DNA of 64,000 bases from Leucobacter chromiireducens. Its GTDB lineage: Bacteria > Actinomycetota > Actinomycetes > Actinomycetales > Microbacteriaceae. Made by a program: the position numbers and the translations under genes. Of this stretch, positions 45,366 through 54,511 are shown one piece after another (positions within the stretch are counted from its first letter, which is position 1; every line of letters begins with the position of its first letter). The notes beneath the pieces are model-generated. The model saw only the letters and a list, made by a program, of their open reading frames with translations. It searched no databases and was not told the origin of the DNA. The stretch is taken from positions 62,001 through 126,000 of the forward strand of contig NZ_RPDI01000006.1 in NCBI RefSeq assembly GCF_003917135.1, in the 5' to 3' direction.

Positions 45366-46550
45366 CTACGCCGCGCGCTTCGCTGCGGTGGCGGCAGCGA
45401 CGAGGCGCCGCACCGCCTCCATCGTATCCGCGTGCGAGAGCGCCGCGTTGAAGCGCACACTCCCGGCGCCCGCCGCGCCGCAGGATGAGCCGTCGGTCAC
45501 GACGATCTGCGCGGCCTCGCGCACCGCCTCGGCAGCGCTCTGCCCCGCCCGGATCAGGCCGGTATCGCTGAGGTCGAGCCAGAGCAGGTAGGTCGCGTCC
45601 GGCGCGATCACCCGGATCCCGGTATCGGTAGCGGTGGCGTGCAGCAGCGCGATGGCCTCGCGCACCGTGTCCCCCAACTCGGCGATGGTGCCGCGCAGCC
45701 ACTCGCGCCCCTCCGTGTACGCCGCGGTCGTCGCGACGACGCCGAGCACGGCGGTCTGGTGCTCGTGCCAGTGCCCCACCCGGCGCCACGCGGCGAGCTG
45801 CTCCGGGTTCGTGAAGATGAGCTGTCCGCACTTCGCCCCGGGAATGTTGAACGCCTTGGTGGCGGAGGTTGCGGTGATCGTGTGCGCCGCGGCACGCGCG
45901 GTGCGGGCGGCGTAGACGATGTGCTCGCCCGCACCGAGCACGAGCGGCGCGTGGATCTCATCGGCGAACACGATCCCGTCGAACTCGGCGACGAGCTCCT
46001 CGATCGCGGCGAGCTCCACCTCTGTTGCGACCTTGCCGATGGGGTTGTGCGGGTTGCACAGCACGATCAGCCTGGCGCCGGCCTCGAACGCGGCACGCAG
46101 CGCAGGCAGGTCGTAACGCCAGCCGGCGGTGCCGTCACGGAGCATGGGCACCTCGATGACCGGGTGTCCGATCTGCTGCGGCACCGACAGGAACGGCATG
46201 TAGCCGGGCGTCGGCACGATGATCGGCTGCCCGGCTGGCAGCAGGTGGGTGAGCACCGCCCGGAAGCCGGCGACCAGGTCGGCCACGGGGCGGATCGCGT
46301 CGGGGCTCGGCTCCCAGCCGTAGCGTTCGCGCAGCCAGTCGGCGACGACGCGCTGCAGGCGGGCGACATCGTCCTGTGCGAGGTAGCGGAGCGCGTCGGT
46401 CGCCACCGCGTCGGTCAGCGCGCGTGTGACCGCTGGCGCGCAGCCGCGCTCCATCTCGGCGAGCGGTCGGCCGAGTGGCTGCCGTGCTGCTGCTCCGGCG
46501 GTCGCTGCTCCGGCGGTTTCTGGCCCGGCGACCCCTGCTGCGATCTGCAC
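45366..46550 (-). CDS. PLP-dependent aminotransferase, MalY/PatB type
   Basis: This fold-type I PLP enzyme has 394 residues from a GTG with AAGGAG five bases upstream. Landmarks: CNPHNPIGK (Asn166), FADEIHAPL (Asp197), and SATKAFNIPG with the Schiff-base Lys232. These match the MalY/PatB cystathionine beta-lyase-like group. The N-terminus is odd: the usual PLxVADMD entry is reduced to LAEMERGCAPAV after an Ala/Gly-rich leader, and the KW-type substrate segment is absent, so either the start is misread or the enzyme has altered specificity. It is divergent from the peptide ABC operon. Confidence 0.85.
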   Translation of the reverse strand: MQIAAGVAGPETAGAATAGAAARQPLGRPLAEMERGCAPAVTRALTDAVATDALRYLAQDDVARLQRVVADWLRERYGWEPSPDAIRPVADLVAGFRAVLTHLLPAGQPIIVPTPGYMPFLSVPQQIGHPVIEVPMLRDGTAGWRYDLPALRAAFEAGARLIVLCNPHNPIGKVATEVELAAIEELVAEFDGIVFADEIHAPLVLGAGEHIVYAARTARAAAHTITATSATKAFNIPGAKCGQLIFTNPEQLAAWRRVGHWHEHQTAVLGVVATTAAYTEGREWLRGTIAELGDTVREAIALLHATATDTGIRVIAPDATYLLWLDLSDTGLIRAGQSAAEAVREAAQIVVTDGSSCGAAGAGSVRFNAALSHADTMEAVRRLVAAATAAKRAA

Positions 46551-46926
46551 CCCTGCTCCTTCGTGCTTGGCGCACCGGGTGGCGCGCACTGTTCATGCTA
46601 GGTCTGGGCGCCGGCCCGCAGCTCTTCGTTTCGGCTGGGGTGCTCTCTGTTTTCCTTGGGTCTCACGCTCCATCAAACTTGAGAAGTGGCAAACCGACGC
46701 TTCCGCCGCGCGAAGGGTGGGTTTGCCACTTCTCGATCCCGATCGAGGCGCACGTTACCTCGCAAGTCCGCGCGACTCACGCCTGAAATCACGCTCGGAT
46801 ACGCTTTCCCCGCGGGCGCCTTCACGCCCGCTGGGGCCGTCGGCCGCCAGTACACTCGATCCAGCACCCACCGCGACCGTGCGGGGGCGGGGCCAACCGG
46901 CCCCGGGCACGCAAAGGAGCGACACG
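46551..46926. other. Divergent intergenic region (376 bp)
   Basis: It separates the aminotransferase gene from the peptide-type ABC operon. No gene is seen. It holds promoters for both sides and, at 46681-46734, one copy of a 54-bp palindromic element. The rest is less GC-rich than the flanking genes around 46620-46690. Confidence 0.7.
46681..46734. repeat. 54-bp palindromic element, copy 1
   Basis: Two 23-bp arms (46681-46703 and 46712-46734), matching at 21 of 23 positions, flank an 8-bp loop. The arms contain the core GTGGCAAACCGAC. The same 23-8-23 element recurs at 53254-53307, on the other side of the ABC/C39 operon. It sits in a divergent promoter region, 192 bp before the binding protein ATG, so it is not placed as a terminator. 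Confidence 0.9.
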
Positions 46927-48555
46927 ATGCACACACCACTCACCCGAGCAGGCCGCCGCGGCCGCGTCCGTCTCGTCGCGGCCGCCGCCATCGCCGCCTC
47001 CCTCGCACTGGTCGGCTGCGCCGGCGGCGGCGGGGCCGCCGAGCAGGCGCCCGTCGAGCTCGTCGACACCGGCGCGGAACTCGACCAGGTCACCGTTGCG
47101 TTCCCCGGCTCGCTGGCGAACCTCTATATCGGCCAGGAAAGCGGCATCCTGAACTACAACCTCGCCGCCACCGTGCAGGAGGGCCTCGTCACCCAGGACG
47201 CGAGCGGCGCGGTCGTGCCGGCGCTCGCCGAGTCGTGGGAGACCCCGGACGACACCACCTACGTGTTCACGCTGCGCGAGGACGCGAAGTTCCAGAACGG
47301 CGACCCGGTCACCCCTGAGGACGTGGTGTTCAGCCTGCAGCGCGCCCAGGATCCCGAGCTCTCCCCCGGCATCTCCTACTACCTCGCGAACCTCGCCTCG
47401 GCCGAGAAGACCGGCGACCGCGAGGTCACGGTGAAGAGCTCCGCGCCCGACGCCACCTTCCTCGTCAACCTCTCCAACTCCGGCGCCCTCGTGGTGACCC
47501 AGCAGAAGTTCTGGGAGGAGCACGCCGGCAAGGTGGGCACGAGCTCGTCGCTGCTCATGGGCACCGGCCCGTACCAGGTGACCGAGTTCCAGCCGGACTC
47601 GCACGTGCTGCTCGAGCGCGTCGACACCTGGTGGGGTGGCGTACCGAAGGCGAAGACCATCCGCGTGAACTTCATCCCGGACGCCAACACCCGCCTCGCG
47701 GCGGCGCAGAAGGGCGACATCGACATCGCGTTCAACGTGCCGATCAACCAGGCGGCCGAGTGGCAGAAGATCAGCGACATGCGCGTCGAGTCGATGAACG
47801 ACCTCTCCTACGTCGGCCTGCTGTTCGACGAGCGCGTCGCCCCCTTCGACGATCCGAAGGTGCGCGAGGCCATCGCGCTGAGCATCGACCGCGCCGCGAT
47901 CGCGGAGAAGCTCCTCCGCGGCTACGGTGAGGCCGCCACCGCGATCATGACGCCCGAGTCGCTCGCGCAGGCCTTCGACGGCGACGCGGCACGCGCCGAG
48001 CTCGCGAAGATCCCGCAGCACGAGTTCGACCTCGACGCGGCGAAGCAGCTCATCGGCGAGACCGACGCCGCCGACCTCACGACCGAGCTCACCTACCCGA
48101 ACACGGGGCCGCAGCTCGGGATCGCGGCGCAGGCGATCGCCGAGAACCTCGACAAGATCGGGATCACGGTGAAGGTGCGCGAGGTGCCCATCGAGGAGTG
48201 GCTCGCAACCATCGGTGACGGCGAGCACGGCCTCGGCTTCATGTGGTACTTCTCGACGACCGGCGACCCCGCCGAGGTGAACGGCTACCTCCTGGGCGCC
48301 GGCAACCCGAACGGCTTCGAGAGCGAGGAGGCCGTCGCGCTCATCGCGGAGGCGAACGCGCTCACGGACCCCGAGGAGCGCGCCGCGAAGCTGATCGAGC
48401 TCGAGACGCTGAACGCGGAGAACGTGGTCAACGCCCCGATCTGGTGGGGCAAGTCGGTCACGGCATTCTCGAACGGCGTTGGGCTCGCCGACTACGGCCC
48501 TTACACCTTCACGGGGGCGTGGGGCGCGCAGATGTTCGCCGCCGAGGCGAAGTAG
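46927..48555 (+). CDS. Peptide-type ABC transporter substrate-binding lipoprotein (SBP family 5)
   Basis: The 542-residue lipoprotein (lipobox ALVGC, Cys31) belongs to the DppA/OppA/NikA family. Typical segments are VTVAFPGSLANLYIG, TYVFTLREDAKFQNGDPVTPEDVVFSLQR (about 110-140) and GTGPYQVTEF. An AAAGGAG RBS precedes the ATG at 46927. It heads a five-gene unit with two permeases, a fused ATPase and a C39-like enzyme. Ligand is likely an oligopeptide or similar; glutathione, nickel chelates or opines are possible in this family. Confidence 0.9.
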   Translation: MHTPLTRAGRRGRVRLVAAAAIAASLALVGCAGGGGAAEQAPVELVDTGAELDQVTVAFPGSLANLYIGQESGILNYNLAATVQEGLVTQDASGAVVPALAESWETPDDTTYVFTLREDAKFQNGDPVTPEDVVFSLQRAQDPELSPGISYYLANLASAEKTGDREVTVKSSAPDATFLVNLSNSGALVVTQQKFWEEHAGKVGTSSSLLMGTGPYQVTEFQPDSHVLLERVDTWWGGVPKAKTIRVNFIPDANTRLAAAQKGDIDIAFNVPINQAAEWQKISDMRVESMNDLSYVGLLFDERVAPFDDPKVREAIALSIDRAAIAEKLLRGYGEAATAIMTPESLAQAFDGDAARAELAKIPQHEFDLDAAKQLIGETDAADLTTELTYPNTGPQLGIAAQAIAENLDKIGITVKVREVPIEEWLATIGDGEHGLGFMWYFSTTGDPAEVNGYLLGAGNPNGFESEEAVALIAEANALTDPEERAAKLIELETLNAENVVNAPIWWGKSVTAFSNGVGLADYGPYTFTGAWGAQMFAAEAK

Positions 48556-48563
48556 TTCCCACC

Positions 48564-49553
48564 GTGTCCACCACCCGAGCAGGCGGCGCCCCGGGCGGGC
48601 GCCGCCTGGCCCGCACGCTGACGCTGCGCATCGGCGGGGTGCTCGTCATCCTGCTGGTGCTCTCGTTCCTCACCTTCACGCTGCTGTACCTCGCGCCGGG
48701 CGATCTCGTGAAGAACCTGCTCGGCAACCGGCCGAGCTCCCCCGAGGCCATCGCGGCGATCCGCGCGCAGTACCACCTCGACGACCCGTTCCTCGTGCGC
48801 TACGTCGACTGGCTGTGGAGCGCCGTGCGCGGCGACTTCGGGGAGTCGATCCGGCTGCAGCAGCCCGTCACCGCGGTCATCGGCTCGCGGCTCGGGATCA
48901 CGTCGCTGCTGATCGGCCTGTCGTTCGTGCTCGCGCTCATCACGGCGGTGCCGCTCGGCATCGTGAGCGCGGCGCGCGCCGGCACCCCCGTCGACCGCGT
49001 CGCGAGCGCCACGGCACTCTTCGGCCTCTCCGCGCCGAGCTTCGCCCTCGCGATCCTCGCCATCACGGTGTTCGCGATCGCGATCCCGATCTTCCCGGCT
49101 TACGGCGCCGGCGATGGTCCGCTCGATCAGCTCTGGCACCTCTTCCTGCCCGCGGCGGTGCTCGCGGCGGGCATCGGTGCGATCCTCATGCGCATGACCC
49201 GCGCGGCGGTGCTCCGCGAGCTCGAGAGCGACGCGATCACGTTCGCGCGTGCGCGCGGGATCCCCGAGCTGCGGGTGCGGCGCATCGCGCTGCGCGCGGC
49301 CCTGATCCCGATCGTCACGAGTGCCGGGCTGATTCTCACGTTCATTATCGGCGGCACGATCATCGTCGAGACGGTCTTCGCGCTGCCCGGGATCGGCCAG
49401 CTGCTGCAGGAGGCGGTGCTGTTCAAGGACCTGCCGGTGGTGCAGGCGATCACCCTCCTCGTCGCGGCCGCGATCGCGATCATCACCATCCTCGTGGACA
49501 TGAGCTACCTGCTGCTCGATCCGCGCGTCCGAGCACGGGAGCTGAGCGCATGA
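48564..49553 (+). CDS. Peptide-type ABC transporter permease (DppB-like)
   Basis: The 329-residue permease has six membrane helices and the DppB-type N-terminal FTLLYLAPGDLVKNLLG segment. The cytoplasmic EAA-like loop is ITFARARGIPELRVRRIALRAALIPI. It starts at a GTG 8 bp after the binding protein gene and overlaps the next permease by four bases (ATGA). Confidence 0.92.
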   Translation: MSTTRAGGAPGGRRLARTLTLRIGGVLVILLVLSFLTFTLLYLAPGDLVKNLLGNRPSSPEAIAAIRAQYHLDDPFLVRYVDWLWSAVRGDFGESIRLQQPVTAVIGSRLGITSLLIGLSFVLALITAVPLGIVSAARAGTPVDRVASATALFGLSAPSFALAILAITVFAIAIPIFPAYGAGDGPLDQLWHLFLPAAVLAAGIGAILMRMTRAAVLRELESDAITFARARGIPELRVRRIALRAALIPIVTSAGLILTFIIGGTIIVETVFALPGIGQLLQEAVLFKDLPVVQAITLLVAAAIAIITILVDMSYLLLDPRVRARELSA

Positions 49554-50416
49554 CCCCGCGTACCCGCCAAGTGTCCCTGCTCAACGACGTGCGCGTCGCG
49601 CCGGGCCGGCCCCGCGACTGGGTGGCCACCGTGGCCGCCGTGTTCCTCGGCCTCGTGGTGCTCGCCGCGATCGCTTCCCCGTTCCTCACCGAGCTCGCCA
49701 CGGAGCAGAGCATCCTCGACTCGCTGCTCCCCGCCGGCTCCCCCGGGCACCTGCTCGGCACCGACGAGCTCGGGCGCGACGTGCTGCTACTCACCCTCGC
49801 CGGCACGGGTTCCGCGGTCGCCGGCCCGCTCGTGATCGCGGCGGGATCCATGCTCCTCGCGATCCTCATCGGCACCGCGGCCGGCTACCTCCGCGGCCCC
49901 GTCGACTGGATCGTCGGCCGCATCGTCGACATTCTGCTGTCGCTGCCCGTGATGCTCGTCGCCCTCGTGGTCGCCGGTATCTTCGGGGCCGGCTACTGGG
50001 TGACCGTGATCATGCTCGTGCTGCTGTTTAGCCCGTCGGACATCCGGATCATTCGCGCCGGCGTGACCGAGCAGGCGCCGCGGCCCTACATCGAGGCCGC
50101 GCAGATGCTGTCGCTGTCGCCGGGGCGCATCATGTTCAAGCACATCGTGCCGAACGTGTGGCCACTCATCATGACGAACTTCATGCTCAACCTCGCGATC
50201 GCGCTCGTGACGCTGTCCTCGCTGTCGTTCCTCGGCATCGGCGTCGCGCCTGGCACCCCCGACTGGGGCCGACAGATCACCGACGGCCGCGGCATCCTCG
50301 GCGACAACCCGGCGATGATGGTGGTACCCGCGATCCTCATCGTGCTCGTCGCGATGGCCATCAACGTGCTCGGCGATCATCTCGGCGAGCGACTCCGCGA
50401 ACGGGGGATGCAGTGA
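49550..50416 (+). CDS. Peptide-type ABC transporter permease (DppC-like)
   Basis: The 288-residue permease has the DppC-type opening (HLLGTDELGRDVL, about 66-78) and EAA loop YIEAAQMLSLSPGRIMFKHIVPNVWPLI. It pairs with the DppB-like permease upstream. Its stop overlaps the ATPase GTG start. Confidence 0.92.
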   Translation: MTPRTRQVSLLNDVRVAPGRPRDWVATVAAVFLGLVVLAAIASPFLTELATEQSILDSLLPAGSPGHLLGTDELGRDVLLLTLAGTGSAVAGPLVIAAGSMLLAILIGTAAGYLRGPVDWIVGRIVDILLSLPVMLVALVVAGIFGAGYWVTVIMLVLLFSPSDIRIIRAGVTEQAPRPYIEAAQMLSLSPGRIMFKHIVPNVWPLIMTNFMLNLAIALVTLSSLSFLGIGVAPGTPDWGRQITDGRGILGDNPAMMVVPAILIVLVAMAINVLGDHLGERLRERGMQ

Positions 50417-52071
50417 TCACGTCTGCTGACACACAGCTCGACAGCCGGGGCACCGCGCCGGGGGTGTCGGTCTCGGGGCTCCGCGTCGTCGCGGGCGAGC
50501 GCACGCTCGTGGCTCCCGTCGACTTCTCGGTCGCGCCTGGCGAGCTGCTCGCCGTGATCGGCGAATCCGGATCGGGGAAGTCGATGACCGCGCGCGCCCT
50601 CACGGGCCTCCTCCCCCGCGGCGTCCACGCGACGGGCGATGCGCGCATCGACGACCACGCGTACGACCTGGCCTCCGGGCGCGACGCGGACTGGGCCGCC
50701 GTGCGCGGCCGGCGTGCCGTGTTGCTGCTGCAGGATCCGTTCACGAGTCTCAGCCCCGTGCTGCGCTGCGGCGCGCAGATCGCCGACACGATCGAGGCGC
50801 GCGCCGCGGCGACCGGGCAGCGGCTCGCGGCGACTGCCGTGCGCGCGGAGGTGCTGCGCCGCCTCGCCGAGGTGCGCCTGCCCGAGCGGGTGGCGCGGCA
50901 GTACCCCAGCGAGCTCTCCGGCGGCATGCGGCAGCGCGTCGCCATCGCCGCGGCGCTTGCCGCCGACCCGCGCCTCCTCATCGCCGACGAGCCGACCACC
51001 GCGCTCGACGCGAGCACGCAGGGCGAGGTGCTCGACCTGCTCCGCGAACTGCAGCTCGCGCACCAGATGAGCCTCATCCTGATCAGCCATGACCTCGGCG
51101 TCATCGAGGGGCGTGCCGACCGCGTGCTCGTGATGCGGCACGGCGAGGTCGTCGAGCGCGGCGACACCGCCGCGGTGCTGCGCGCCCCCGAGCACCCGTA
51201 CACGCGCCAGCTGATCGCGGCGAACCTGTCGGTCTCGGATGATCTGCGCGAGCCGAGCGAGCGGCCCGCGCCGCTGCTCGAGGCCGAGCACCTGTCCAAG
51301 CGCTTCGGCGCGACGACCGCGCTCGCCGACGCGACCGTGTCCGTCGCGGCGGGTGAGGTGCTCGCGATCGTCGGGGAATCCGGATCGGGGAAGACCACGC
51401 TTGCCCGCGCGATCGCCGGCCTCGAACGACCCGACACGGGCGAGGTGCGGCTTGCGGGGCGCACGCTGCCGCCCGGGCGCCGCGGGCGCACCCCCGGCGA
51501 GATCCAGGTCGTGTTCCAGGATCCGTACTCGACGCTGAACCCCGTGTTCACCATTCGCGAGTCGCTCGACGAGGCACTGCGGGCCGGCGGGCGGGGCGCT
51601 GGCCGGGCACAGGCTGGCGGGCAGGGCGCGCGCAGCGTCGACGAACTGCTGCGGCTCGTCGAGCTCGATCCCGCGCTCGCCGATCGCCGGCCGGCGCAGC
51701 TCTCGGGCGGGCAGCGGCAGCGCGTCGCGATCGCCCGCGCACTCGCCCCCAACCCGCAGGTGCTGATCTGCGACGAGAGCGTCTCGGCGCTCGACGTCTC
51801 CGTGCAGGCCCAGATCCTCGGGCTGCTCGCCCGCCTGCGCGATGAGCTGCAGCTCGCCATGCTCTTCATCACGCACGACCTCGGCGTCGTCGCGCGCATC
51901 GCCGACCGCATCACCGTGCTGCGGCTCGGTGAGATCGTCGAGCAGGGCGACACCGGCAGCGTGCTACGCGCACCACAGCACCCGTACACGCAGCTGCTCG
52001 TCGCGGCTGCGGAGCGCGACAGCATCGCGCGCGGGCACGACGAATCACTTCCACGAGAGGAGCGGGCATGA
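50413..52071 (+). CDS. Peptide-type ABC transporter ATPase (DppD-DppF fusion)
   Basis: The 552-residue protein contains two complete ABC domains: Walker A GESGSGKSM and GESGSGKTT, signatures LSGGMRQR and LSGGQRQR, Walker B LLIADEPTTALD and VLICDESVSALD (Ser replaces Pro after the catalytic Glu, common in this family). Both sites look functional. The fused form resembles GsiA/YejF-type ATPases. A Gly/Arg/Ala-rich insertion (GGRGAGRAQAGGQGARS) interrupts the second domain before its signature. Confidence 0.92.
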   Translation: MITSADTQLDSRGTAPGVSVSGLRVVAGERTLVAPVDFSVAPGELLAVIGESGSGKSMTARALTGLLPRGVHATGDARIDDHAYDLASGRDADWAAVRGRRAVLLLQDPFTSLSPVLRCGAQIADTIEARAAATGQRLAATAVRAEVLRRLAEVRLPERVARQYPSELSGGMRQRVAIAAALAADPRLLIADEPTTALDASTQGEVLDLLRELQLAHQMSLILISHDLGVIEGRADRVLVMRHGEVVERGDTAAVLRAPEHPYTRQLIAANLSVSDDLREPSERPAPLLEAEHLSKRFGATTALADATVSVAAGEVLAIVGESGSGKTTLARAIAGLERPDTGEVRLAGRTLPPGRRGRTPGEIQVVFQDPYSTLNPVFTIRESLDEALRAGGRGAGRAQAGGQGARSVDELLRLVELDPALADRRPAQLSGGQRQRVAIARALAPNPQVLICDESVSALDVSVQAQILGLLARLRDELQLAMLFITHDLGVVARIADRITVLRLGEIVEQGDTGSVLRAPQHPYTQLLVAAAERDSIARGHDESLPREERA

Positions 52072-53219
52072 CCGCCGCAACGCACGATTTCACCCTCGAC
52101 GCGCAGCCGGGGGCGCAGCTCCCCGACGAGCTTCGCGATTCTCTCCCGGCCGCGCGCGCGGCACTCTGGGACGTGGAGCGCGAGCTCTGGACTCCGCGCA
52201 CCGTCACCGCCCGCGATCGATCGGGATCGGTGCTCGGCGCCGCGCTCACCGCGGCCCGGCCCTTCTCCGCGTATCGCAAGATCGTGGATGTGGTCGCTGG
52301 GAGCGGTGAGGTGTGGGCTGCGCTCGTCGCCGCCGCGCGCGATGACCGTGCCGACGCGCCGGGCACCGAGGAGCATCCCGCGCCGATCGCCGTGCACTTC
52401 GAGGAGCACCTCACCGTCGCCCCGCTGACCGAGGCGCAGCGCTCAGCGCTCGGTCCCGCGGGCTTCGCCCGCGCGGCCACCCCGGTGCCGTCGGTGCCGA
52501 GCACCCGGCAGGATGACGAGCACGGCGTGGCCGCGTGGTCGTTCTGGCGTGTGCCAGCGCCCGCGCGCACCGCGCCGTACTACGGGCAGACCACCGACGT
52601 GACGTGCGGCGCGGTGGCGGCGCTCACCGCGCTCGAGCAGCGCGGCCTCGGCGAGTTCCGCGCCGACGATGGGGCAGAGAACCGGGCGGCGGAGATCGCG
52701 TTCTGGCGCCGCGCGACGAACCTCCCGGCGTGCGAGCCGATCGGGCTCGCGGTCGAAACCGCGAAGCTCGGCGCGGACTCGGGCACGCTCGCCGCCCGCC
52801 CCCGCGTCTTCCTGAGCACCCCCGACCCGGTGTTCATCGAGGAGTTCTCCGAGCAGCCCTGGGAGCAGGAACTCCGCATCGACCTGCAGCGCGAGTCGCT
52901 GCGGCAGGCTGAGGCCCTCGGCTTGCCGCTCGAGCGGCGCTGGCTCGAGGTCGAGGAGATCGTCGACGCGGTGCGCGGCGGCGCGCAGGTGCTGCTGCTC
53001 ATCGACCTCACCGAGCTCATCGCGGACCCGACGCCGCACTGGGTGCTCGCCACCGAGGTGGTGGGCGAGACGTTGCTCATCGCCGACCCGTGGGTGCAGG
53101 CGCCGAACGGCGAGACCTGGGTGGACACGTTCGCCCTCCCGCTGCCGTTCGCGACGATCGACCGCATCACGCGCTGGGGCACCCCGGCGTTCCGGGGCGC
53201 GATCATCCTCGAGCCCTAG
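52068..53219 (+). CDS. GNAT-like / peptidase C39-like fusion protein
   Basis: The 383-residue protein is coupled to the ATPase gene by an ATGA overlap with GAGAGGAG upstream. Residues 170-383 form a C39-like (DUF3335-type) cysteine peptidase domain: Gln174 and Cys180 in YYGQTTDVTCGAV, His324 in TPHWVLATE and Asp340 in LLIADPW make a complete papain-like site. The first 165 residues resemble a worn GNAT acyltransferase fold (for example LTEAQRSALGPAGF) without a clear acetyl-CoA loop. There is no signal peptide or membrane helix, so it acts in the cytoplasm, probably on the imported compound. Confidence 0.78.
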   Translation: MTAATHDFTLDAQPGAQLPDELRDSLPAARAALWDVERELWTPRTVTARDRSGSVLGAALTAARPFSAYRKIVDVVAGSGEVWAALVAAARDDRADAPGTEEHPAPIAVHFEEHLTVAPLTEAQRSALGPAGFARAATPVPSVPSTRQDDEHGVAAWSFWRVPAPARTAPYYGQTTDVTCGAVAALTALEQRGLGEFRADDGAENRAAEIAFWRRATNLPACEPIGLAVETAKLGADSGTLAARPRVFLSTPDPVFIEEFSEQPWEQELRIDLQRESLRQAEALGLPLERRWLEVEEIVDAVRGGAQVLLLIDLTELIADPTPHWVLATEVVGETLLIADPWVQAPNGETWVDTFALPLPFATIDRITRWGTPAFRGAIILEP

Positions 53220-53253
53220 CCCCGCGCACACGCGCCCCGCGCGGGCGGGAATC

Positions 53254-53307
53254 GAAACGTGGCAAACCGACCCTTCAGCAGCACGAAGGGTCGGTTTGCC
53301 GCTTCTC
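53254..53307. repeat. 54-bp palindromic element, copy 2
   Basis: Two 23-bp arms (53254-53276 and 53285-53307) match at 20 of 23 positions, the inner 16 perfectly, around an 8-bp loop. It shares its core with the copy at 46681. It lies between two convergent stops (53219 and 53334), where it could also serve as a bidirectional terminator. Confidence 0.9.
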
Positions 53308-53333
53308 AGATGAAGTGAGCAGGAAAGAGCAAG

Positions 53334-53966
53334 CTAGTAGAGGAGGAACTGGGCCGTGCCCGTGCCCTGCGCGCCCGCGGCGGACACCCGCAGGTGGTAG
53401 GACGCGCCGCCTGCGCCCACCGGGTCGCGCGTGATGTCGCAGGTCTCCGTGCTGGAGCGCGTGCGATCCCAGGTGATCGGCTCGGTCTCGAGCGGCTTGC
53501 CTGGCTCCAAGATCACCGCGAGCGACTCCGCGCCCGTCTGGCAGTCCGTGGAACGCCACACCTCGTCGTCGCCACTCGAAATCGCGAACTCCATGCCGGC
53601 GGTGCCGAGATCGGCCGTGCAGGCCTCCTCGCCCGTGTTCTCCGCGGACAGCGAGAGCGCGGGCAGCTCACCCGCCGGGTAGTCACCGCGATCCGTGACC
53701 GGCGTGATCTTCAGCTGGCCGGCGCGGCACGCCGCGGGACCGTCCGTCTCGTCGGCGGCGTCGCCGGCACCCTCGCTCGGGGTGGTGTCGATCCCCTCGG
53801 GCACCTCGACCTGTGCCACGTCCTTCGGCCCATCGCCGCTGCCCGGCTTCACGATCACGAGCACAATCACCGCGATCACCGCGAGCAGGCCGAGCAGCAC
53901 GAACAGTCGCCGCCGAATGTAGACCTTGCGGTCTTTCGGCCCGACCGGATCGCGAAGGGTGGACAT
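53334..53966 (-). CDS. Membrane-anchored extracytoplasmic protein, unknown function
   Basis: The 210-residue product has a short cytoplasmic head, one membrane helix (about 20-41, RLFVLLGLLAVIAVIVLVIV), an acidic Thr/Glu/Asp linker (about 55-78), and an outside beta-rich domain with cysteines in ACRAG, EEACTADLG, STDCQTG and ETCDITR, likely forming two disulfides. The pattern (a GxYPAGELPALSLSAENTG strand) resembles actinobacterial DUF4232-like or Ig-like sensor domains, but I cannot assign a family. It precedes the ArgA-like gene's end by 26 bp on the same strand. Confidence 0.7.
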   Translation of the reverse strand: MSTLRDPVGPKDRKVYIRRRLFVLLGLLAVIAVIVLVIVKPGSGDGPKDVAQVEVPEGIDTTPSEGAGDAADETDGPAACRAGQLKITPVTDRGDYPAGELPALSLSAENTGEEACTADLGTAGMEFAISSGDDEVWRSTDCQTGAESLAVILEPGKPLETEPITWDRTRSSTETCDITRDPVGAGGASYHLRVSAAGAQGTGTAQFLLY

Positions 53967-53992
53967 GGCGCCAGCGTAGCCCGGAAAGTGGG

Positions 53993-54511
53993 TTACAGCC
54001 GCTTCAACATGCGCGTGTTGCCGAGGGTGTTCGGCTTCACGCGCGCGAGGTCGAGGAACTCGGCGACGCCCTCGTCGTTCGAGCGCAGCAGCTCGGCATA
54101 CACGTCGGCGGCAACGAGCTCCGTGTTCTCGGCCATCTCCTCGAAGCCGTGCCGCCCGAAGAAGTCGGTCTCGAAGGTGAGGCAGAACAGCTGCGTGAGG
54201 CCGAGCTGCCGCGCGCGATCCTCCAGGGCGGTGATGAGCCGGTGGCCAACGCCGTGGCCGAGCCACTCCTCGGAGACACCGAGCGTGCGCACCTCCCCCA
54301 GCTGCTCCCACATCACGTGCACGGCGCCGTAGCCGACGAGGGTGCCGTGCTGATCCTCCGCGATGAGAAACTCGGGCACGGCAGCGTACAGGTCGACGAG
54401 ATCCTTCCCAAGCAGGATCCTTCGCGCCACCAGGGGCTCCATCAACTCGACCATGCGGAGCACGTCGCCCGTGCGCGCATTGCGGATGCGAATCTCAGCA
54501 GACACACTCAT
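53993..54511 (-). CDS. argA: Amino-acid N-acetyltransferase, short ArgA-type GNAT
   Basis: This is a 172-residue single GNAT domain. The acetyl-CoA binding segment is GVSEEWLGHGVGHRLITALED (about 78-98), followed by LFCLTFETDFFGRHGFEEM, which matches the stand-alone N-acetylglutamate synthases of actinobacteria (as in mycobacterial ArgA). It would supply N-acetylglutamate for arginine synthesis. The gene symbol is assigned by this similarity; other arg genes are not in the window. It lies just beyond the clpC terminator. Confidence 0.8.
   Translation of the reverse strand: MSVSAEIRIRNARTGDVLRMVELMEPLVARRILLGKDLVDLYAAVPEFLIAEDQHGTLVGYGAVHVMWEQLGEVRTLGVSEEWLGHGVGHRLITALEDRARQLGLTQLFCLTFETDFFGRHGFEEMAENTELVAADVYAELLRSNDEGVAEFLDLARVKPNTLGNTRMLKRL

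What the first reader, a model, noticed from the sequence alone, without database searches (positions are those of the whole stretch)
46681..53307. A peptide-ABC/C39-like operon bracketed by two copies of a 54-bp palindrome
Seen: both copies have two 23-bp arms around an 8-bp loop with the same core (GTGGCAAACCGAC), one 192 bp before the first gene, the other 34 bp after the last gene. I saw no other copy in the window. Copy 1 lies in a divergent promoter region, so it is not a simple terminator. Inference: a REP-like or mobile small palindrome used as a boundary of a movable cassette, or a binding site insulating the operon.
Basis: partly seen in the sequence, partly recalled or inferred. Interest (0 to 1): 0.75.

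Follow-up and report, generated by a model that had tools for sequence, protein, structure and literature searches.

The report
Palindromes linked to a nuclease gene
The two hairpin-shaped repeats around this transporter operon belong to a small scattered family of apparently mobile DNA repeats that landed beside an old operon, and repeats of this type repeatedly sit next to one kind of DNA-cutting-enzyme gene, which may be what spreads them.

Summary
Both palindromes are real. They belong to a dispersed family (19 places in this Leucobacter genome) of near-perfect ~60-bp palindromes. They are not cassette edges here: three relatives carry the same operon in the same place without either palindrome, so two separate insertions is the most economical reading. 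Another pair, on contig C12, does bracket an 8.5-kb block whose site is empty in relatives. 15 of 17 classifiable copies lie within 112 bp of a stop codon.

No RAYT/Y1 transposase was found in this genome or 39 others. Instead, such palindromes lie beside DUF559 genes (Vsr-like nucleases): DUF559-like ORFs lie within 1 kb of the palindrome in 5 of 59 palindrome-chosen loci, plus one added because it hit, and nowhere in 1.05 Mb of comparison sequence. Conversely 25 of 63 DUF559 loci carry a long palindrome against 5 of 60 control slices; 6 of 58 carry two against 0 of 60. A prediction held: the palindrome flanking a second DUF559 gene here recurs at 19 places. I read this as a REP-like system with a nuclease in place of RAYT. 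The linkage is statistical; catalysis is inferred.

The parts
46678..46737 (.). Palindrome copy 1 of family A, 26-8-26, in the divergent intergenic region
   Evidence: absent at the orthologous site in G011, G012, G014
53251..53310 (.). Palindrome copy 2 of family A, between convergent gene ends
   Evidence: absent in G014 at the same site; other sequence there in G011 and G012
46927..48555 (+). Solute-binding protein family 5 (SBP_bac_5); ancestral operon, not part of the element
   Evidence: PF00496 E 8e-84
48564..49553 (+). ABC permease 1 (BPD_transp_1)
49550..50416 (+). ABC permease 2 (BPD_transp_1); start read by eye, the gene finder gave 49571
50413..52071 (+). Fused double ABC ATPase with oligo_HPY
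52068..53219 (+). C39-peptidase-like protein (PF11814, DUF3335)
   Evidence: E 5e-40
45366..46589 (-). Aminotransferase class I/II, divergent neighbour; syntenic in relatives (start uncertain: the gene finder gave 46454)
53334..53966 (-). Convergent neighbour, no Pfam family at E 0.001

Best explanation
The two palindromes are separate insertions of a REP-like, non-autonomous mobile palindrome (family A) into the two intergenic ends of an operon that was already there. Family A belongs to a wider actinobacterial superfamily of about 60-bp palindromes (fixed CAAA and CCCTTC blocks; variable blocks that covary between arms). Long palindromes of this kind, each family with its own sequence, lie beside genes for a protein with a DUF559 Vsr-like PD-(D/E)XK nuclease C-terminus and, in some members, a recognisable AbiEi-like winged-helix N-terminus, as REPs lie beside RAYT in 'REPtrons'. 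Proposed mechanism (inferred): the N-terminus recognises the palindrome and the nuclease cuts it, as hairpin, cruciform or duplex, or cuts the target, and repair copies the palindrome to new sites. Copies persist where they do least harm, just behind stop codons and between convergent genes, where the hairpin may also act as a bidirectional terminator or 3'-end stabiliser. Occasionally two copies mobilise or recombine around a gene block (contig C12). Shown: dispersal, sites without the element, 3' bias, arm covariation across species, DUF559 association, dispersal of a second DUF559-linked family. Inferred: that the nuclease does the moving, and how.
For: 19 places in the genome, every listed hit 61 bits or more. 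R1 matches in 6 of 60 genomes, own included. Copy 1 site: 14, 16 and 17 bp in G014, G012 and G011 where this genome has 86-89 bp. Both C1 copies lie in stretches that are syntenic in G012 but about 80 and 230 bp shorter there (not aligned base by base). 15 of 17 copies within 112 bp of a stop codon; 9 of 17 in convergent gaps versus 10 of 101 other gaps of 40 bp or more. Covariation on 27 chosen sequences: 111 double-change cells against 36.5 shuffled and at most 27 slid. Palindrome-chosen loci: DUF559-like ORFs within 1 kb of the palindrome in 5 of 59 loci fixed before the scan (own, G191, G018, G058, G270); own and G191 founded the hypothesis. A sixth, Cryobacterium zongtaii L243, was added because the scan hit it. 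None in the other 493 kb of those loci, nor in 554 kb of non-redundant other loci. DUF559-chosen loci: 15 of 30 (includes the founding cases), 7 of 28, 3 of 5 with a long palindrome against 5 of 60 control slices (Fisher 1.8e-5 and 0.04 for the first two); two palindromes in 6 of 58 against 0 of 60, p 0.012. The family flanking own C45 DUF559 recurs at 19 places with up to 3 mismatches, reversed control 0. Columns S185, E188, D222, D235, G236, D249, G260, R265 invariant in 14 DUF559 proteins; AbiEi_4 in L307, E 9e-8. No Y1 transposase found in own plus 39 genomes.
Against: No transposition or cleavage was observed. 38 of 63 DUF559 loci show no long palindrome by my criterion, and the independent set is only modestly enriched (7 of 28 versus 5 of 60, p 0.04 by locus; by rate p 0.0045). 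Set 1 contains the two founding loci. A few counted hairpins (L312, L314) look like GC-rich terminators or low-complexity sequence. Own third DUF559 gene (C21, L313) has no long palindrome. G266 has 6 A-like places but no PF04480 match at E 0.001. Own A-linked DUF559 (C34) has a palindrome on one side only. 54 of the 59 palindrome-chosen loci have no DUF559-like gene nearby, as expected for dispersed copies but also for chance neighbours. Within this genome alone the arms show no more covariation than shuffles. The AbiEi match passes Pfam's cut-off in only 1 of the 10 proteins. Copy ends and target duplications could not be fixed because the nearest genomes are only about 80-90% identical. G011 and G012 carry other sequence at the copy-2 site.
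Confidence: 0.6

Rival explanations
1. Palindromes are dispersed by another, unlinked transposase (MITE-like); DUF559 genes merely sit near them, because both collect in accessory intergenic regions, or because the N-terminal domain uses the palindrome as its own operator.
For: Many DUF559 genes have low coding scores for their length in my gene finder, as foreign genes would; an AbiEi-like N-terminus suggests DNA-binding autoregulation; most DUF559 loci lack a long palindrome (38 of 63).
Against: Two palindromes around the gene in 6 of 58 loci; the family beside a DUF559 gene is dispersed in the same genome in own A, own G and G191; all 20 exact core hits lie in palindromes, so no IS bearing these exact ends was seen in the contigs.
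Confidence: 0.25
2. The palindromes are ordinary bidirectional intrinsic terminators of convergent genes that look alike by convergence.
For: 3'-end and convergent placement; very stable hairpins; one subtype has AAAAG...CTTTT ends.
Against: About 77% mean best pairwise identity over 60 bp across unrelated loci; no R1 match in 32 of 36 congeners; no T-tail terminator found in 46400-53450; the hairpin seen at one orthologous gene end in about a dozen congeners is of another kind, 15-19-bp arms and a short loop around GGGCCCGCTGC; copy 1 is in a divergent region.
Confidence: 0.08
3. The palindromes mark the ends of a movable cassette that carries the peptide-ABC/C39 operon.
For: Bracketing in the window; on C12 an 8.5-kb ricin-lectin/RCC1 block is bracketed by the two most similar copies (97%) and its site is empty in relatives.
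Against: The operon sits at the same place in G011, G012 and G014 without palindromes; the C1 pair flanks DNA that is syntenic in G012.
Confidence: 0.05

Closest known systems
REP / RAYT (TnpA-REP) REPtrons
   Same: Short extragenic palindromes, dispersed, close to 3' ends and in convergent gaps, with a linked DNA-processing enzyme gene flanked by cognate palindromes (passages of PMC3733652 and PMC8266576 seen)
   Different: Longer (60 bp against the 20-40 bp given in the PMC3733652 abstract); no GTAG or CGTC foot seen; no Y1/HUH (PF01797) transposase found in 40 genomes; linked gene is a Vsr-like DUF559 nuclease
CGTC REPs
   Same: REPs that, per the abstract passage seen, apparently lack a dedicated transposase
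   Different: No CGTC foot seen; a candidate enzyme is proposed here
MITEs
   Same: Small, inverted repeats, non-autonomous
   Different: No parent IS with the same exact ends found in the contigs; target duplication unresolved
Vsr / DUF559 endonucleases such as Caulobacter VsrA
   Same: PD-(D/E)XK superfamily, DUF559 domain (passages of PMC12907096)
   Different: VsrA is discussed there as a mismatch-repair nuclease tied functionally to a cytosine methylase; the term 'palindrom' does not occur in that main text

Membership tests
REP/RAYT system | Dispersed extragenic palindrome | tested here: met
   19 places; 15 of 17 within 112 bp of a stop codon
REP/RAYT system | GTAG or CGTC tetranucleotide at the foot | tested here: not met
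   No such conserved foot, read by eye, in 19 aligned copies with 30-bp flanks
REP/RAYT system | Y1/HUH transposase (PF01797) in the genome | tested here: not met
   0 of 1 own, 0 of 39 others at E 0.001; the same search is positive in 5 of 14 control genomes
REP/RAYT system | Enzyme gene flanked by cognate palindromes | tested here: not met
   No RAYT gene was found to be flanked. The analogous arrangement occurs with DUF559: L303, L306, L307, L325, L335, L350
MITE of an IS | Autonomous IS with the same terminal inverted repeats | tested here: not met
   All 20 exact 13-mer hits fall in palindromes; the draft has 93 contigs, so an IS collapsed at a contig end, or one with diverged ends, could be missed
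MITE of an IS | Target-site duplication | tested here: inconclusive
   GGGCCCGGGT on both sides of the C12 insertion and once in G011; GC-rich, may be chance
Intrinsic terminator | Stem followed by a T tract | tested here: not met
   0 terminator-like sites in 46400-53450
DUF559 Vsr-like nuclease (linked gene) | PF04480 match over its cut-off and PD-(D/E)XK-type residues | tested here: met
   Own C34 E 2.8e-10, own C45 3.3e-7, own C21 2.4e-6, all over cut-off; E188, D222, D235, G236 invariant in 14 proteins. Which of them are catalytic is recalled from the superfamily, not tested
DUF559 Vsr-like nuclease (linked gene) | Nicks or cuts DNA | not testable with these tools
   needs biochemistry
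Integron attC site | Recombination by an integron integrase between tandem cassettes | not tested
   No integrase family was searched

The most novel reading that the evidence does not exclude
Actinobacteria carry a second, RAYT-independent kind of REP system: lineage-specific ~60-bp palindromes dispersed by a linked winged-helix plus Vsr-like (DUF559) nuclease, with each nuclease paired to its own palindrome family.
Probability: 0.5. Interest if true: 0.87.

Novelty: new variant of a known kind. Interest (0 to 1): 0.76.

Why it matters
[quoted passage not shown] If a Vsr-like nuclease disperses palindromes, a large family annotated in Pfam only as 'unknown function' (PF04480, found in 49 of 89 genomes of this order at E 1e-5) gains a testable role, and PD-(D/E)XK nucleases gain a new kind of mobile-DNA job. 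It would also explain species-specific hairpin families at gene ends in these GC-rich Actinobacteria that can be mistaken for terminators or cassette borders.

Tried and rejected
Rfam: no match at E up to 1 in 46000-54000. RAYT: none found. Plasmid blastn of the copy-1 region: none. Cassette model for the window pair: rejected on synteny. C1 pair as cassette: rejected. Genome-wide clustering of A copies: three pairs within about 17 kb is close to random expectation for 19 copies in 3.2 Mb (my estimate, no call). I used 8 of the 113 for the alignment and 9 for the 60-locus count: those 8 plus L243, which I added after the scan hit it. The scan covered all 113, and L243 was the only one hit. Two more L. 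luti rows, L219 and L225, turned out to hold A-like palindromes and no DUF559-like ORF; with them the count is 6 of 62. The 629 kb of comparison loci was partly redundant; one search gives 554 kb. NCBIfam gave no name above cut-off for 10 DUF559 proteins; PDB hit 3hrl was weak, E 0.03. Viral-contig searches for DUF559 relatives gave one weak locus, not used. The element boundary in L073 was off by one and corrected. In one search the L296 row was read in the wrong frame and left out of the HMM. In one search the automatic ORF choice for L303 was wrong, so its missing blastp matches mean nothing. A possible link between DUF559 group and loop length did not hold cleanly (L307 has both 13 and 8). 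Literature: (open-licence PMC only); listings and abstract starts seen; passages seen in PMC3733652, PMC12907096, PMC8266576, no paper read whole; no listed title or abstract start linked DUF559 or Vsr to REP-like palindromes, which is not proof of absence.
Full report
OBSERVATION. Both fold far better than shuffles (-41.1 and -37.4 kcal/mol, z -7.3 and -6.7). The operon is SBP_bac_5, two BPD permeases, a fused ABC ATPase and a DUF3335/C39-like protein. No other copy was found in the window.

A DISPERSED FAMILY. The exact 13-mer core occurs 20 times in the 3.2-Mb genome, the reversed control 0 times. A covariance model of 13 copies finds 38 strand-wise hits at 19 places, all listed hits 61 bits or more. 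With flanks aligned, information falls towards background just outside a 60-62-bp element. Mean best pairwise identity of the 19 copies is 77%; this includes one row (L073) that was one base out of register. In some copies the pairing runs on through the loop (L016, L071, L075, L076).

THE OPERON CAME FIRST. G011, G012 and G014 (about 80-90% identical across the region) have aminotransferase and operon side by side with 14-17 bp where this genome has 86-89 bp containing copy 1. At the copy-2 site G014 runs operon end to convergent gene with no palindrome; G011 and G012 have about 1 kb and 5 kb of other DNA there. So two insertions, not a cassette; loss in three relatives is less economical. 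Both contig-C1 copies lie in a stretch that is syntenic in G012 and shorter there by about 80 and 230 bp; I did not align those sites base by base. The other 13 copies were not tested for empty sites.

A PAIR THAT DOES BRACKET A VARIABLE BLOCK. On C12 the two most similar copies (97%) bracket 8.5 kb with ricin-B lectin, RCC1 and Big_3_5 genes and a sub-threshold S26 match. In G011 and G012 the flanking genes are adjacent; in G018 the flanks are about 280 bp apart and the block lies about 30 kb away. GGGCCCGGGT occurs on both sides of the insertion and once at the G011 site, a possible duplication that could be chance. Recombination between palindromes or composite mobilisation would fit; the mechanism is not shown.

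PLACEMENT. Of 17 copies with both neighbours visible, 9 are in convergent gaps, 6 in codirectional and 2 in divergent gaps, against 10, 58 and 33 of 101 other gaps of at least 40 bp in the same loci; 15 of 17 lie within 112 bp of a stop codon (home-made gene finder). Two copies at contig ends (L073, L074) were left out of that count. Passages of PMC3733652 seen describe REPs close to 3' ends of convergent and unidirectional genes.

A WIDER SUPERFAMILY. Related palindromes exist in Leucobacter luti (G018, identified by matching contig lengths), other Leucobacter, Cryobacterium and beyond. Aligned (27 chosen sequences), CAAA and CCCTTC are nearly fixed while the blocks between covary: 111 double changes against 36.5 in shuffles and at most 27 in slid pairings. 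Some rows were found with a pattern that fixes those blocks. Template-switch repair of palindromes (recalled) could also produce such matching, so this is not by itself proof of selection. Within the 13 own copies there is no excess. Model R2 matches 18 of 218 genomes of the order and 14 of 76 genera, own included, several at multiple places.

THE LINKED GENE. No PF01797 gene was found in own plus 39 genomes. Scanning neighbours, a DUF559 gene turned up beside the C34 copy and another between two palindromes in G191. I then tested both directions. (i) An HMM of 19 DUF559 proteins was run on the ORFs of 90 or more codons in all loci then held. Among 59 loci fixed beforehand as palindrome-chosen, DUF559-like ORFs lie within 1 kb of the palindrome in five: own, G191, G018, G058 and G270; the first two founded the hypothesis. 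Cryobacterium zongtaii (L243, broken gene) was added because the scan hit it; two further L. luti loci (L219, L225) gave none, so 6 of 62 in all. There were none in the remaining 493 kb of those loci nor in 554 kb of non-redundant other loci. (ii) Among loci chosen only for DUF559, long palindromes (arm 20 or more, score 14 or more) occur in 15 of 30 (first set, which includes the founding cases; 30 of 31 matches had a locus), 7 of 28 (independent set; only best-scoring loci were returned, two already in the first set) and 3 of 5 named plasmid-collection loci (three Arthrobacter yes; Nonomuraea and Tsukamurella no). The control was 60 slices of 3.2 kb from 20 stretches I placed in 20 of these genomes: 5 of 60. 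Two palindromes occur in 6 of 58 loci and in 0 of 60 slices. (iii) Prediction: the palindrome on both sides of the C45 DUF559 should be dispersed. It is: 34 arm hits, up to 3 mismatches, at 19 places, reversed control 0.

THE PROTEIN. DUF559 proteins here have a DUF559/MTES_1575 C-terminus and, in some, an AbiEi-like N-terminus (PF13338 in L307, E 9e-8, the only one of 10 over Pfam's cut-off; weaker or absent in others). Eight columns are invariant in 14 proteins, among them E188, D222, D235 and G236. In Leucobacter they form two groups by blastp: own C34, L. luti C3, G014's L293 and L305, and G020's L315, L318 and L321; and own C45, own C21, G011, G012, L. luti C4, G014's L314 and G020's L306. 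Whether each group pairs with a palindrome type is unproven.

READING. The simplest account is a REP-like system whose enzyme is a Vsr-like nuclease. What is shown is dispersal, sites lacking the element, placement and linkage. Whether the nuclease moves the palindrome, is regulated by it, or simply travels with it needs bench work. The main results against: most DUF559 loci (38 of 63) have no long palindrome by my criterion, the independent set is only modestly enriched (p 0.04 by locus, 0.0045 by rate), own third DUF559 gene (L313) has none, and G266 has palindromes but no PF04480 match.

Noticed in passing
L012:6158-6226, L012:7505-7571, L073:3296-3367, L075:2341-2425: A second long-palindrome family in this genome (GATCGGGGTCACT..GGCAGGGTGTCGC and the like, loop 5-12), cognate gene unknown.
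   Followed up: no
L015:2999-3064, L018:3961-4022, L302:1370-1429: A third family (CGGAGAAATCTGG..ATCTCGGAG) seen twice here and also near the end of the G011 DUF559 gene.
   Followed up: partly
L307 (G000:C45) and 19 genome places: A fourth family (CGATTCGGCGTATCCAAG) flanks own C45 DUF559 on both sides and recurs at 19 places, those two included.
   Followed up: yes
L011:4993-13617 (G000:C12): 8.5-kb block with ricin-B lectin, RCC1 and Big_3_5 genes bracketed by two palindromes, absent at that site in G011 and G012 and elsewhere in G018.
   Followed up: partly
L134:5890-5975 and L310:764-839 (G018): The block in L. luti ends at an unrelated long palindrome that looks like the same family as the one upstream of an L. 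luti DUF559 gene.
   Followed up: no
L331, L330, L301, L348, L314: Some DUF559 genes are surrounded by other repeats, direct or inverted, on both sides; L331 has a repeated unit containing TTTCAACACGATTCCGTCCACCTCCCGG.
   Followed up: no
L365:7313-7378 and L402:2353-2418: One of the five control palindromes resembles the palindrome beside an Arthrobacter DUF559 gene, so the control itself may contain a dispersed copy.
   Followed up: no
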